Made by a program: the position numbers and the translations under genes. Under the pieces are notes generated by a model. It was not told the origin of the DNA. It ran no database searches and was given only the letters and a program-made list of their open reading frames with translations. Shown here one piece after another: positions 14,057 to 49,867 of a DNA stretch of 64,000 bases. Position 1 is the first letter of the stretch. Every line of letters starts with the position of its first letter. Source of the stretch: Lentzea fradiae (lineage in GTDB: Bacteria; Actinomycetota; Actinomycetes; Mycobacteriales; Pseudonocardiaceae); assembly GCF_900100955.1 (NCBI RefSeq), contig NZ_FNCC01000001.1, positions 558,001 to 622,000 of the forward strand, given 5' to 3'.

Positions 14057-14092
14057 CGCGTCGTCCGGCCGCACTCGCCGGTGGATGCTTAA

Positions 14093-14126
14093 GGTGTGCT
14101 CCCCCGACCGAGTTCAGGAGCACACC
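14093..14126 (+). promoter_or_regulatory. Hairpin sequestering the ribosome site of the SUKH gene
   Basis: GGTGTGCTCC and GGAGCACACC form a perfect 10-bp stem with a 14-nt loop. The 3' arm contains the GGAG ribosome site and ends directly at the ATG at 14127. If transcribed, this stem hides the start region. Confidence 0.55.
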
Positions 14127-15386
14127 ATGCAGGCGGAACTGGCCGCTGTCGCGCACGACCTCGTCGCCGCGGTCGAACCCGGCTTCGGCCACCTGACGCT
14201 GCGCGCGTCCTGCGGCGGCGGCGGAAGCACCCACCGGCTGACGGCCGGACCGTCCGAACAGGACGTGTTCGCGCCGCTGGAGAGCCTGCGCGAGGTCGGT
14301 CTCGACCGGCCTGTCGTGTTCGAGATGCGGGTCGAGGAGAACGGCACCTTCCAGGCCGTCGCCACCAGGGACATCATCCAGGTCGCGTCCCTGCTCCCGC
14401 CGACGTACACGATCCTGCTGAAGCCGCCACCGCGGCGCGAGCGGCGGGAGGTGTCGACGCTCGCCGAGGTGGAGAGCGTGATCGGGGTGTCGCTGCCGCC
14501 GGAGCTGCACGACCTGCACGCGGGCCGGGCGCGGATCGACGAGGACATCACCCTGTACTCGCCCGACGACATCGTCCTGACGTGGCAGAGCTGCCTCTCG
14601 ACGGAGGAGGAAGACCCGCGCGACTGGGAGACCCCGGTGCTCTACGCGGGGCCGCCTGACGCCGTGCGGACCGTGCGGTTCCACCCGAGGTGGGTTCCGT
14701 TCGGCTACAACGACTGGGGTGACGCGCTGTGCGTCGACCTCGCGCCGGGGCCGCGCGGACGGGCCGGGCAGGTGGTCCAGCTCGCGGGTGAGGGGCCGCT
14801 GACCTACCTGGCCGACTCGGTCGCGGGCCTGGTGCTGCCGGACTCCTACCCTGGAACGAGAGGGCTGAAGGACAGCTTCACCGTGGCCGACCGCGGGCTG
14901 GAAGGGATCGCGGCGCTGCCGGAGACGGTGCAGTCGCTCACCTTGCGCGAACCGGGCGACCTCGACTTCGGGGTGCTCGCCCGGCTGTCCTCGTTGCGGG
15001 AGCTGCGGATCACGCGCGGCGGGTCCGTCCGCCTCGGCGCGCTGGCACACCTCCCGTTGCGGCGGCTGGAGGTGAGCGGGTACGAGATCGAGCTGCCGGT
15101 GTGCGAGACGATCACCGCTCTCGTGCTCGACGGCGCGTTCGTCGACCTGCCGCCGCTGCCGAACCTCCGCGTGCTCGACGTGTCCAAAGCGGAGGTGGAC
15201 GTCGAGTATCTGCCGGAGGTCGACTACCTGGTGATGAACGCCGCGCAGTGGCGGCGCTGCTCGACGAGTCCCGCCGCGGCCACGCTCACCGGGGAGTCCT
15301 CGCTGGCCGGTGCGCTCGCGTGGGCGCGGGAACGCGGCGTGGAGCTGCCGTACGAGGTGGTCAGCGGGCGGGTCTCGGCCACCTGA
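14127..15386 (+). CDS. SMI1/KNR4 (SUKH)-like protein with leucine-rich-like C-terminus
   Basis: 419 residues from ATG 14127 (CAGGAGC upstream). The N-terminal ~115 residues look like a separate alpha-beta domain. Around 115-255 is a SUKH-type domain (STLAEVESVIGVSLPPELHDLH and VPFGYNDWGDALCVDL, the usual 'gndgGd..cvDl' pattern). The C-terminal region has repeated LRELRI..GG, LRRLEVSGYE and LRVLDVSKAEV units that resemble short leucine-rich repeats. SUKH proteins are often immunity proteins of polymorphic toxins, but no toxin gene is adjacent. A second SUKH protein occurs at 40316. Confidence 0.7.
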   Translation: MQAELAAVAHDLVAAVEPGFGHLTLRASCGGGGSTHRLTAGPSEQDVFAPLESLREVGLDRPVVFEMRVEENGTFQAVATRDIIQVASLLPPTYTILLKPPPRRERREVSTLAEVESVIGVSLPPELHDLHAGRARIDEDITLYSPDDIVLTWQSCLSTEEEDPRDWETPVLYAGPPDAVRTVRFHPRWVPFGYNDWGDALCVDLAPGPRGRAGQVVQLAGEGPLTYLADSVAGLVLPDSYPGTRGLKDSFTVADRGLEGIAALPETVQSLTLREPGDLDFGVLARLSSLRELRITRGGSVRLGALAHLPLRRLEVSGYEIELPVCETITALVLDGAFVDLPPLPNLRVLDVSKAEVDVEYLPEVDYLVMNAAQWRRCSTSPAAATLTGESSLAGALAWARERGVELPYEVVSGRVSAT

Positions 15387-15419: not shown

Positions 15420-15643
15420 CGAGCACTCCGCCGCAGGCTCTGCCTCCTTCTCCCGCCAGCCACCCACCCGCGCGTCCCCCACCCAGGCGGTCCCGCCCAC
15501 TCCGCGTGACGCGGCTTGGGAACGCGGGGGCCCTACGTTTCCCTACATGGGACGTAGGGCCCCCGCGTACTACACGGGAAACACGAAAGAGAGTCGCGAA
15601 CCGGGCGGGGCGTTACGGACGGCAGTGACGGAAGCGTGCTTAG
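15420..15643 (+). repeat. Dispersed intergenic repeat, copy A
   Basis: A ~224-bp stretch nearly identical to the reverse complement of 49117-49336 (3' ~165 bp about 90 percent by eye, 5' ~60 bp more diverged). Its core is a perfect 17-bp stem, 15522-15538 with 15552-15568, preceded by a small CCGCG-TGA-CGCGG hairpin. It starts 34 nt after the SUKH stop and ends 10 nt before the histidine-kinase start. Between copies most base changes would alter amino acids in the shared open frame, so it is not a conserved protein. Confidence 0.85.
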
Positions 15644-15652
15644 GATGAGGCG

Positions 15653-16774
15653 GTGGTGGCGCTGCTGCGGTCGGTGTGGGACGAACCCCGTCCGGTGCGC
15701 GCGGCCGCGCGGCTGTGGTGGGACTGGGTGCTCGTCGCCGTGCTCCTGGGGCTCGCCGTGATCGAGGCGGTGGTCCGGTCCGAGCCGGGCGGGCTGGTCG
15801 TGGCGGTGGTGCTGCTGCCGTTGCTGCTGGTGCGCAGGGACAGGCCGCTGGTCGCGGTCGCCGCCGCGTTCTGCGTGGCCGGGGTCGCCGAGGTGGTGCT
15901 GGGGCGCGAGCCGGAGCTGAACGTCCTCGTCTTCATGGTGCTGTTCCCGTACGCCCTGTTCCGTTGGGGGTGCGGCCGGGAGGCGGTGCTCGGGGCGGCG
16001 GTCATGCTCGCCAAGATCGGGCTGTCGGCGGTGCTGGGGCACGTCGGCGCGGGTGACGCGGTGGCGGGGGTCGCCGTGCTGGGCGCGTCGGGTGCGCTCG
16101 GGGCGGCGGTGCGGTACCGGGCGAAGGCGCGGGCACGCGAGTTCGAACAGGTCAAGCTGCTCGAACGCGAACGGCTCGCGCGCGACCTGCACGACACGGT
16201 CGCGCACCACGTGTCGGCGATGGCGATCCGGGCCCAGGCGGGGCTCGCGACGGCGGCGGCACGGCCGGAGGCGGCCACCGAGGCGCTCCGGCTGATCGAG
16301 TCGGAGGCGTCACGGGCGCTCGCGGAGATGCGCACGATGGTGCGCGCCCTGCGCCGCACCGAGTCCGCGGACCTGGCACCCAGCCCGTCCGTCACCGACA
16401 TCGCGCTGCTCGCGAGCCCGGGACGACCGGGACCGGAGGTGGACGTGCGGATGGACGGAGACGTCGGCGAGCTCCCCAAATCGGTGGGGACAGCGCTCTA
16501 CCGCCTCGCCCAGGAGTCGGTCACCAACGCGCGGCGGCACGCCAGGAACGCCACCCGCATCGACGTCCTGGTGACCGTCGACGACACGGCGGCGCACCTG
16601 CGGGTGAGCGACGACGGCGACACCGGCGGCACCCGCGGGCCCGGCCGGGGACACGGGCTGATCGGCATGCGGGAGCGCGCCGACCTGCTCGGGGGCAGCT
16701 GCGAGGCGGGGCCCGGTCCCGGCCGGGGCTGGACCGTGACGGCCGTGCTGCCGCTGGCGGGAGCGGGCCGGTGA
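15653..16774 (+). CDS. NarL-type sensor histidine kinase
   Basis: 373 residues from GTG 15653 (GGATGAGG upstream). Four to five membrane helices (about residues 20-145), a short coiled region, then HisKA_3 with ERERLARDLHDTVAHHVSAM (phospho-His in LHDTVAHH) and a HATPase domain with YRLAQESVTNARRHA (N box), VSDDGDTGG (D/G1 box) and GRGHGLIGMRERADLLGG (G2 box). The short loops between helices suggest it senses a membrane signal. The stop overlaps the start of the response regulator (GTGA). The start lies just behind repeat copy A, which must contain or abut its promoter; TAGGAT at 15641-15646 could be a -10. Confidence 0.92.
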   Translation: MVALLRSVWDEPRPVRAAARLWWDWVLVAVLLGLAVIEAVVRSEPGGLVVAVVLLPLLLVRRDRPLVAVAAAFCVAGVAEVVLGREPELNVLVFMVLFPYALFRWGCGREAVLGAAVMLAKIGLSAVLGHVGAGDAVAGVAVLGASGALGAAVRYRAKARAREFEQVKLLERERLARDLHDTVAHHVSAMAIRAQAGLATAAARPEAATEALRLIESEASRALAEMRTMVRALRRTESADLAPSPSVTDIALLASPGRPGPEVDVRMDGDVGELPKSVGTALYRLAQESVTNARRHARNATRIDVLVTVDDTAAHLRVSDDGDTGGTRGPGRGHGLIGMRERADLLGGSCEAGPGPGRGWTVTAVLPLAGAGR

Positions 16775-32571: not shown

Positions 32572-32809
32572 GGGCTCTCCGAGAACGACTTCGTGGTGGC
32601 TGTTGCAACTCTTTCGCAATTGCAGATCATTGGCAAGTAGGTGATCGACCGCGACTGCCTTGATGACTTCAGTGTTTGCTGAAAACGCACCTTGCGTCCC
32701 GCGCGGCCGCCGGGGTGAGGACAAGATCGGGGACGTTGCTCCGACCAGGCGACACGCCCACAAGATGTGGGTGTCGATCAAGTCCGGCCGCCCATGTATT
32801 GTGCCGCGA

Positions 32810-32993
32810 AGCTGGTTCGGCCGGTCCTCCAGATCGGTCGTCGCAAGAGGGAACCCGGTGTGAGTCCGGGACTGCCCCGCAGCGGTGAGTGGGAACGAAA
32901 GCCGTCATCGAGCACTGGACGCCGAAGGTCCGGGAAGCGACGGCCGGTAGGAGCCTGTCGGCAGGCACGCCCACGAGTCCGAAGACCTGCCAG
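32810..32993 (+). promoter_or_regulatory. Cobalamin (adenosylcobalamin) riboswitch controlling nrdAB
   Basis: The conserved aptamer core is present: GGGAACCCGGTGTGAGTCC followed by GGGACTGCCCCGCAGCGGTGA (the B12 box region), and downstream GAGTCCGAAGACCTGCC closing the P3-P6 core. It lies on the + strand 127 nt before nrdA. Coenzyme B12 should turn off the oxygen-dependent class Ia reductase when a B12-dependent class II enzyme can serve, as known in Streptomyces. A GC hairpin lies immediately after the aptamer. Confidence 0.93.
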
Positions 32994-32995
32994 CA

Positions 32996-33021
32996 CCCCG
33001 CACGCGAGCACGTGTGCGGGG
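32996..33021 (+). terminator. Hairpin in the expression platform of the riboswitch
   Basis: CCCCGCAC / GTGCGGGG, 8 bp with a 10-nt loop, three bases after the aptamer. It could be the regulated terminator or part of a switching stem. Confidence 0.45.
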
Positions 33022-48205: not shown

Positions 48206-48613
48206 CTGCTCACCTCCTTCCGTTATGTCGGACTGCGAGTGTCAACCAGGTGCCGACCGTTAGGTAGGGCCCTCACCGAAACTGCCGGTGCGCGTGGAAT
48301 GGCTTGCAACGCAAAGGATTCGGCATTCAGCCCACCCGTCACCCGACTGGCTCGCCGACCCGACAGACGGCGTGGTCCGAACGCCGGTCAAATGGGGCCG
48401 TCCGATGTAACGGGCGCGGACTCCGCGCGGCGTGCGGCGGTTTCGGGCGGCAGTAATCCATCCACAGTGGACTCTGCCGGTATCGGCAGGACGTGACCCG
48501 GTCGGCGCAACCTGTTGACACGCGCCCGAGTTCAGTGGCCGTTCACTCCGCGTCCAGACCGCGGGAGCACCGTGACCGCAGTGGTCCTCGACAACTTTGG
48601 AGGTGCTCCACAG
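48206..48613. other. Intergenic region between the SARP gene and a secreted-protein gene
   Basis: 408 nt with no credible gene. TTGACA at 48515-48520 could be the -35 of the secreted-protein promoter, though no good -10 is seen at the right distance. GGAGGT precedes the start at 48614. Confidence 0.4.
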
Positions 48614-49120
48614 ATGTTCCGGAAACTGGCGGCATCACTGGCGACGGCACTGGTCGCCGCGGCATCCGTCGCGCTACCCGCCGCGCCCGCACAGGCGGAG
48701 CCGGTCCGTGCCGGCACCGGAGACGGCCCTGTCGTCTTCACCAGGTCCACCGGCCTGGGCATGCAGGACGTGATCACCTGCACCGGCACCTCGGACAACC
48801 CGCACAACTCCTCCGGCACCCCGAGCGCCGTCACGGGCAAGTCGCGCAGCTCCTGCACGGCACCCGTCGCCGAGATCCGCGCCCAGGCGGAGCTGTGGCG
48901 CTACCTGGAGGGCTACGGCTTCGTCCAGACGGCCATCGGCTCGCTCGCCGCCGCCCCCAACTCCGCGGGCCCCATGCCGTCCACCGCCTTCGACATCTGC
49001 CAGGGGCGCCTCGCCTACTGGGTGACAGTCGGACGCCACACCTTCTACGCGCCACCCGGCTACTCGCCGCCCAAGATCACGCTCGTGACCGAGACGCCCC
49101 CTGTCGGCGTGAACTGCTAG
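48614..49120 (+). CDS. Secreted hypothetical protein
   Basis: 168 residues from ATG 48614 (TTTGGAGGTG upstream). Signal peptide MFRKLAASLATALVAAASVALPAAPAQA, cut after AQA. The mature part has four Cys (ITCTG, SSCTAP, DICQG, GVNC), likely two disulfides, and WRYLEGYGFVQTAIGSL with a C-terminal YWVTVGRHTFYAPPG. No known family. The TAG stop lies within the first bases of repeat copy B. Confidence 0.75.
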   Translation: MFRKLAASLATALVAAASVALPAAPAQAEPVRAGTGDGPVVFTRSTGLGMQDVITCTGTSDNPHNSSGTPSAVTGKSRSSCTAPVAEIRAQAELWRYLEGYGFVQTAIGSLAAAPNSAGPMPSTAFDICQGRLAYWVTVGRHTFYAPPGYSPPKITLVTETPPVGVNC

Positions 49121-49336
49121 GCACGCTTCCAGAACTGCTGTCCGTAACACCCCGCTCCGTTCGCAACTCTCTTTCGTGTTTCCCGTGTAGGACGCGGGGC
49201 CCCTACGTACCATGTACGGAAACGTAGGGCCCCCGCGTTCCCAAGCCGCGTCACGCGGAGTGGGCGGGACCGCCTGGGTGGGTGACACGCGGGCGGGTGT
49301 GTGGCGGAGAGGGACAGCGCTTCCGGCGGAGTGCTC
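49117..49336 (-). repeat. Dispersed intergenic repeat, copy B (inverted relative to copy A)
   Basis: Reverse complement of 15420-15643 with few changes and no indels in the conserved half. The 17-bp stem is at 49192-49208 / 49222-49238, with one G-G mismatch from a C-to-G change. The copy spans the whole gap between the convergent stop codons at 49118-49120 and 49335-49337. As in copy A, it lies directly downstream of a gene read in the repeat's own direction (here the minus-strand gene at 49335). Confidence 0.85.
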
Positions 49337-49649
49337 AGTCCCCTGACTGGCTCAACGCGTCGAGGCCGTCCTGCCACCGCTGCCGCCGTTCGCCCGCCGA
49401 CTGCTCCCACCACGGGGTGCCCCGCTCCCCGAGGGCGGTCTTCGCGAGGTGCACCCGTGCGCGAGCTTCCCGCTCCGCCTCGGCGTCCTGGGCGCGCAGG
49501 GCGGCCCCGACGTCCCTGCGCGCCGCCATCAGGAGGCGGCGCAGCCGTGCCGCGGCCTCGGGCGGGATCTCGGGGTCGGTCGCCCGCCACCGCCTGCCGT
49601 CGATGACGACGAAGTGCCCGTCCGGCGTGTGCTCCTGCTCAGCCACCAC
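49335..49649 (-). CDS. Small conserved actinobacterial protein
   Basis: 104 residues from GTG 49649 (GTG 49646 possible; weak ribosome site). The order GHFVVIDGRRWRATDPEIPP, ARLRRLLMAARRDVGAAL and ARVHLAKTALGERGTPWW is a pattern I recognise from a widespread actinomycete small-protein family of unknown function. It is helical and highly charged, probably cytosolic. Its stop codon lies at the edge of repeat copy B. Confidence 0.7.
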   Translation of the reverse strand: MVAEQEHTPDGHFVVIDGRRWRATDPEIPPEAAARLRRLLMAARRDVGAALRAQDAEAEREARARVHLAKTALGERGTPWWEQSAGERRQRWQDGLDALSQSGD

Positions 49650-49867
49650 CCCAGGATCGCACCGATCCGGGGGCCGGGCAGCGAGGCCGTTCCGCTCGGG
49701 CCTCGTGGAACACCATGTCCACTGTGGAACAACAGGCCCACGTCGCCGAGCGGCGTGCGTCTGGCTGACCGCCGGTCCATTCCGGACTTCCCGCGGCGGC
49801 GCCACCGGTGATCCACCATCGTGTCATTTTTCCGCACCAAACCGCGGAAGTGCCCGATACTCGGCCG

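What the first reader, a model, noticed from the sequence alone, without database searches (positions are those of the whole stretch)
15420..15643. Dispersed ~220-bp non-coding repeat, copy A, with a perfect 17-bp stem
It is about 90 percent identical over the conserved 165 bp to the reverse complement of 49117-49336, 34 kb away. Both copies follow a gene in the same relative orientation and end in the same GCGTGC(T/C)TAG. Of about eleven differences in the longest shared frame, roughly eight change the amino acid, arguing against a protein. It may be a mobile non-autonomous element, a processed 3'-UTR module or a small RNA.
Basis: seen in the sequence. Interest (0 to 1): 0.72.

Follow-up and report, generated by a model that had tools for sequence, protein, structure and literature searches.

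The report
Stop-codon-targeting IS630 MITE with hairpin
The repeat is one of about 85 copies of a small transposase-less jumping element in a Lentzea genome that lands on the stop codons of genes, gives each gene a new stop, and brings along a large hairpin that may end transcription from both sides.

Summary
The two window copies belong to a family of 85 full-length copies in this genome; none of 23 other genomes of the genus has the full element.

It is a MITE of the IS630/Tc1-mariner group. Its imperfect terminal inverted repeats, AGCRC-N4-CCAGARGTNCTGTCC, match intact 1.16-kb IS630-family elements in Lentzea, Kutzneria and Saccharothrix. All 13 such elements examined are flanked C-TA|IS|TA-G, as are most young MITE copies in a relative. 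The target is therefore CTAG with TA duplicated. Because the repeat starts with A, insertion at a TAG stop rebuilds a stop (TAA) on each side.

At three loci, relatives show the ancestral state: convergent genes whose stops overlap in CTAG. 48 of 77 copies lie between convergent genes, 1 of 77 between divergent genes.

Each copy carries a strong symmetric hairpin; relatives have similar ends around other hairpins. I infer that retained copies work as bidirectional transcription ends. No cognate transposase was found in this genome. Termination itself is untested.

The parts
15422..15640 (+). MITE copy A (219 bp), between two codirectional genes; left target bases decayed to CG, right target bases TA followed by G
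   Evidence: L098
15422..15445 (+). 5' terminal inverted repeat of copy A, imperfect
15522..15568 (+). central symmetric hairpin of copy A: perfect 17-bp stem, 13-nt loop
15576..15596 (+). conserved internal box GGGAAACACGAAAGAGAGTCG (mean column identity 0.95 over 77 copies)
15612..15640 (+). 3' terminal inverted repeat of copy A, including conserved GTTACGGAC
15641..15642 (+). TA of the target-site duplication on the right of copy A, followed by G
49120..49335 (-). MITE copy B (216 bp), exactly between the stop codons of two convergent genes
   Evidence: L099
49335..49337 (-). stop codon TGA of the left gene, straddling the target bases and the first A of the terminal repeat
49118..49120 (+). 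stop codon TAG of the convergent gene: target TA plus the outermost base of the element
49192..49238 (-). central hairpin of copy B (17-bp stem with one mismatch)
14085..15386 (+). gene upstream of copy A, ends 35 bp before the element
15653..16774 (+). gene downstream of copy A; the frame reads like a sensor histidine kinase (by eye, not searched)
48515..49120 (+). convergent gene ending at copy B (start codon uncertain)
49335..49805 (-). gene ending at the other edge of copy B (start codon uncertain)

Best explanation
It is a non-autonomous transposable element (MITE) of the IS630/Tc1-mariner group. Shown by sequence: its terminal repeats AGCRC-N4-CCAGARGTNCTGTCC match those of IS630-family elements; these and related MITEs sit in the dinucleotide TA inside CTAG, with TA duplicated. 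In this high-GC genome CTAG is strongly depleted, and many of the remaining sites are stop codons, among them overlapping stops of convergent genes. Because the element begins with A, insertion at C-TA-G leaves C-TA|A...T|TA-G, so each flanking gene keeps a stop codon (TAA, later often TGA or TAG) at its old position. Inferred: a transposase acting in trans moved it; such insertions cost little and survive; the cargo, a strong symmetric hairpin, then ends or processes transcripts arriving from either side, so copies are kept as bidirectional 3' ends. Also inferred: the family amplified in this species and its cognate transposase was later lost; relatives still hold related ones.
For: Copy number: 85 full-length copies here at 95-201 bits, best score in 23 other same-genus genomes 60 bits. 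Related autonomous elements: an IS630 transposase (NF033545, 158 bits against a cut-off of 100; DDE_3) lies between ends matching the MITE ends at 17-18 of 24 and 22-23 of 29 positions (at most 1 in 200,000 shuffles as good). Target: 13 of 13 full IS copies are flanked C-TA and TA-G; in relative G022, 25 of 32 flanks of 16 MITE copies are TA and the other 7 differ by one transition. Empty sites: at L106, 5 of 9 relatives with the same convergent partner have both stops overlapping in CTAG, with the same C-terminal lengths; at L104, 4 of 12 with CTAG and 2 more with another 4-base overlap; at L119, 8 relatives with CTAG overlap, partner recognised by its tail by eye. A different element with similar ends lies at the L106 junction in G016. 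Position: 27 of 66 left genes and 22 of 58 right genes have a stop exactly one base into the repeat; convergent 48 of 77 against 40 of 315 background pairs, divergent 1 of 77 against 80 of 315. Genus-wide ends: 167 pattern hits against 6 for the reversed pattern over 24 genomes. CTAG depletion: 7 in the window against 162 expected from base composition.
Against: In this genome TA itself is intact at few edges: 11 of 64 left and 16 of 62 right scored edges, so the TA duplication rests mainly on younger copies in relatives and on the IS. No cognate transposase is in this genome: best matches 27% identity, or 41% over 74 aa. 18 of 77 copies lie between ++ genes, including copy A, and a minority are tens to hundreds of bases from any stop. 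At L119 the left gene here is one residue longer than in relatives. The gene calls are from my own simple caller. The hairpin lacks a T-run after it (read by eye), and stem covariation is weak. Termination is not demonstrated.
Confidence: 0.85

Rival explanations
1. A vertically inherited genus-wide intrinsic terminator (or other 3'-UTR module) that only looks dispersed, kept similar by concerted evolution and not by transposition.
For: The central hairpin ACGCGGGG...CCCCGCGT alone occurs downstream of genes in other Lentzea species, sometimes at what look like orthologous sites in several species (L136, L143, L162).
Against: The full element is confined to this genome; three loci are empty in relatives; the ends match IS630 ends and the target is CTAG. 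Another species, G009, has its own family absent from the rest.
Confidence: 0.07
2. A REP/REPIN-type palindrome moved by a RAYT (Y1) transposase.
For: High copy number, palindrome, enrichment at 3' ends and between convergent genes.
Against: Defined terminal inverted repeats shared with DDE IS630 elements, and a TA target duplication in relatives, which Y1 transposition is not known to make (the last point recalled). No RAYT was searched for.
Confidence: 0.02
3. A selfish MITE only: it accumulates at stop codons because CTAG is there and insertion is tolerated there, and the hairpin has no function for the host.
For: Target choice alone puts such elements at stops: 8 of 26 edges of autonomous IS copies and 17 of 31 edges of young G022 MITEs look like gene ends. 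Convergent enrichment of IS630 and of RUP is already reported (passages in PMC9208149 and PMC3049150).
Against: Internal boxes (0.93-0.95) and the outer stem arm (0.998) are better conserved than the outer 3' motif (0.81) over 77 old copies, which is odd for decaying junk. Different species carry different strong hairpins in similar ends.
Confidence: 0.3

Closest known systems
RUP, repeat unit of pneumococcus (proposed to be moved in trans by IS630-Spn1)
   Same: Short non-autonomous repeat, about 100 copies, ends like an IS630-family element, TA target; over-represented between convergent genes (passages read in PMC2229807 and PMC3049150)
   Different: RUP is 107 bp, and the passages read report no exact fit to stop codons; here 216-219 bp with a strong central hairpin and a CTAG target at stops; the cognate IS is missing from this genome
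IS630 (Shigella sonnei) and ISY100
   Same: TA target duplication (PMC2170065, passages); IS630 prefers 5'-CTAG-3' (title of Tenzen and Ohtsubo 1991 in the reference lists of PMC2170065 and PMC6811581; the paper itself is not held)
   Different: Those are autonomous; this element codes for nothing
SPRITE of Streptococcus pneumoniae
   Same: Repeat resembling a terminator, most enriched between convergent genes near CDS ends, proposed to be co-opted as terminator (passages read in PMC3049150)
   Different: SPRITE has a T-rich tract and no known IS relative; this element has IS630 ends and no T-tract
MITEPsy1 of Pseudomonas syringae
   Same: MITE inserting at CTAG or YTAA (passage read in PMC3189936)
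   Different: Four-base duplication, 100 bp, proposed parent ISPsy2

Membership tests
MITE of the IS630/Tc1-mariner group | short, no transposase gene | tested here: met
   216-219 bp
MITE of the IS630/Tc1-mariner group | terminal inverted repeats | tested here: met
   5' and 3' consensus ends match at 17 of 24, 0 of 200,000 shuffles as good; imperfect
MITE of the IS630/Tc1-mariner group | ends similar to an autonomous IS of the family | tested here: met
   22-23 of 29 and 17-18 of 24 matches to the IS ends in L235; transposase NF033545
MITE of the IS630/Tc1-mariner group | TA target-site duplication | tested here: inconclusive
   in this genome's old copies TA is intact at only 27 of 126 scored edges; clear in related MITEs (25 of 32 flanks) and in IS copies (13 of 13 elements)
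MITE of the IS630/Tc1-mariner group | multiple dispersed copies with empty sites in relatives | tested here: met
   85 copies; three empty-site loci
MITE of the IS630/Tc1-mariner group | mobilised by the transposase in trans | not testable with these tools
   needs a transposition assay; no cognate transposase in this genome
Intrinsic (Rho-independent) terminator | GC-rich hairpin | tested here: met
   z -5.6 to -6.3
Intrinsic (Rho-independent) terminator | T-run directly after the hairpin | tested here: not met
   sequence reads CCCCGCGTACTACACGGG after the stem
Intrinsic (Rho-independent) terminator | terminates transcription | not testable with these tools
   no RNA data
Known structured RNA (Rfam) | match to a family model | tested here: not met
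   only a cobalamin riboswitch elsewhere in the window at gathering threshold
REP/REPIN with RAYT | Y1 (RAYT) transposase in the genome | not tested
   none searched for

The most novel reading that the evidence does not exclude
A group of IS630-type MITEs in Lentzea acts as a delivery system for bidirectional transcription ends. The shared ends aim at overlapping stop codons and rebuild both stops, while the hairpin cargo is exchanged between families, so that each species builds its own set of 3' ends for convergent genes. The conserved boxes beside the hairpin would then be binding sites of a host termination or RNA-processing factor.
Probability: 0.35. Interest if true: 0.78.

Novelty: new variant of a known kind. 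Interest (0 to 1): 0.56.

Why it matters
It shows in DNA how a transposon can be nearly harmless by design: a CTAG target and an end that starts with A let it land on a stop codon, even on two overlapping ones, and leave both genes with a stop. It also offers a natural series of insertions and empty sites to test whether mobile elements supply bacterial genes with new transcription ends, and whether convergent genes gain from being separated.

Tried and rejected
Structured RNA from Rfam: no match at the repeat. Wide presence: an exact box pattern found nothing in 84,980 GTDB species, own genome possibly left out. Terminal repeats as simple stop-codon copies (early reading): replaced by TA duplication plus a repeat starting with A, after the G016 and G022 copies and the IS flanks. 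The IS630 copies in this genome as the partner: L215 has other ends and lies in CTAG; L214 has other ends too, as read by eye from its printed sequence; their transposases are distant. Stem covariation as proof of RNA function: weak. A 13-base stretch in G010 between two CTAGs resembles an excision footprint, but I could not test it.

Rows dropped: one search fetched 20 of the 22 relatives matched (not G008, G023); model R1 was built from 41 of 77 copies; context and conservation were counted on 77 of 85 copies; one search scored target bases only where the end repeat was recognised (64 and 62 of 77); one search counts the 16 of 17 fetched G022 stretches in which both ends were found; one search used these 16, one edge too short. 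At L119 my script's partner test failed for the relatives because of a one-residue length difference, and I recognised the partner by its tail by eye. The conservation script looked for the right stem arm by a word that also occurs in the left arm, so I quote only the outer left arm.

Full report
Observation. Copy A has a perfect 17-bp stem, copy B the same stem with one mismatch. The stem folds far better than shuffles. They are two of many: a box pattern finds 77 sites in this genome and none with the reversed control, and a covariance model built from 41 copies finds 85 full-length matches at 95 bits or more (counted from the listing). In the 23 other genomes of the genus the best score is 60 bits. 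A plain DNA search of 39 relatives matched 11 of them, ten at the central hairpin and one (G021) over 30 bases elsewhere.

Anatomy. All 77 copies fetched align from end to end. Mean pairwise identity of the core is 0.75, none at 0.98 or above, so the family is old. From outside in there are: an end AGCRCTSCGCCAGAGGTYCTGTCC; a C-rich arm with a GTGTCA box; a box GCGTGACGTGGCT; the hairpin; a box GGGAAACACGAAAGAGAGT; and GTTACGGACAGC leading into the other end. The two ends are inverted repeats of each other, 17 of 24 positions. Internal boxes (0.93-0.95) and the outer left stem arm (0.998) are better kept than the outer 3' motif (0.81).

Where it sits. With a simple codon-usage gene caller, 48 of 77 copies lie between convergent genes, 28 between codirectional genes and 1 between divergent genes; the background in the same loci is 40 convergent and 80 divergent of 315 neighbouring pairs. 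The stop codon falls exactly one base into the end repeat for 27 of 66 left genes and 22 of 58 right genes. Copy B is such a case on both sides; copy A lies 35 bp behind its upstream gene and 12 bp before the next start codon.

How it got there. At locus L106 the genes on both sides have orthologues in relatives. Nine of the 20 relatives fetched have the same convergent partner, and in five of these the two stop codons overlap in CTAG, with unchanged C-terminal lengths. At L104, 12 relatives have the same partner: four with CTAG overlap and two with another four-base overlap; at L119, eight relatives show CTAG overlap, with the partner recognised by its tail by eye. One relative, G016, carries at the L106 junction another element with similar ends, CTAAGCACCTGGCCGGAAGTCCTGTCC...GGTGCTTAG, around an unrelated 26-bp hairpin.

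The parent. The end pattern, with up to 2 mismatches, has 167 hits in the 24 Lentzea genomes against 6 for the reversed pattern. Some pairs of such ends lie 1.16 kb apart and enclose one gene. The product is an IS630-family transposase. All 13 full copies examined, in Lentzea, Kutzneria, a Saccharothrix MAG and a record named Nocardia sp. NRRL S-836, are flanked by C-TA and TA-G. Sixteen MITEs of 171-438 bp in G022 show TA at 25 of 32 flanks, the other 7 differing by one transition. Thus the target is TA in CTAG. The first base of the element is A, so C-TA-A is read as stop TAA on each side. This accounts for the CTRAG...CTYAG borders seen here: TAA has often turned into TGA or TAG. The cognate transposase was not found in this genome.

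Why at stops. CTAG occurs 7 times in the 64-kb window against 162 expected from base composition; 3 of the 7 are at stop codons. In the 77 loci outside the elements, 23 of 75 CTAG sites are at stops, 36 intergenic and 16 inside genes. So target choice and survival together may suffice for the position. Edges of autonomous IS copies look like gene ends in 8 of 26 cases, of young G022 MITEs in 17 of 31.

Function. Shown: each copy places a strong, symmetric hairpin behind genes. Inferred: it ends or processes transcripts from both sides. Against a textbook intrinsic terminator is the missing T-run, and stem covariation is weak (4 of 17 pairs with a change on both sides, 10 of 17 invariant; covariation score reached by 11 of 500 shuffles). 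For a role are the conserved inner boxes, and the fact that other species carry other strong hairpins in similar ends, as in G016. I put the MITE identity at about 0.95, the stop-codon mechanism at about 0.85 and a host-useful transcription-end role at about 0.55.

Known or new. IS630 preference for CTAG with TA is in print (cited titles in PMC2170065 and PMC6811581; passages read), as are IS630-linked MITEs (RUP; passages of PMC2229807 and PMC3049150), enrichment of IS630 and RUP between convergent genes (passages of PMC9208149 and PMC3049150), and a terminator-like repeat, SPRITE (PMC3049150). I found no paper in the held library on a MITE that rebuilds stop codons, or on MITEs in Lentzea (listings, with passages of the likely ones). 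The library lacks most subscription journals.

Noticed in passing
window 32796-33008 (+): Cobalamin riboswitch, Rfam RF00174, 98 bits.
   Followed up: no
L158, L164-L168 (G009): Another Lentzea species has its own family of about 180-bp elements with related ends and a hairpin; near full-length copies were found only in that genome of 24.
   Followed up: partly
L315-L331 (G022): Closely similar, probably young MITEs of 268 and 355-438 bp with similar ends; some fold as almost one long palindrome.
   Followed up: partly
L333, L239 and the L106 junction in G016: Copies with a 26-bp perfect hairpin (GTTGATGAGGGGAGCTTTCATAAACC) instead of the ACGCGGGG hairpin; part of that hairpin sequence occurs in a G022 element, L321, which suggests cargo exchange.
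   Followed up: partly
L036, L039, L031-L057: The ACGCGGGG...CCCCGCGT hairpin occurs close behind genes in several Lentzea species without the full element, sometimes followed by GGAAACACG.
   Followed up: partly
L215, L214 (this genome): Other IS630-like loci with different ends; the ends of L215 lie in CTAG.
   Followed up: partly
L202 (G010), junction behind the L106 orthologue: Two CTAG sites separated by 13 bases that resemble both ends of the element, possibly an excision or deletion footprint.
   Followed up: no
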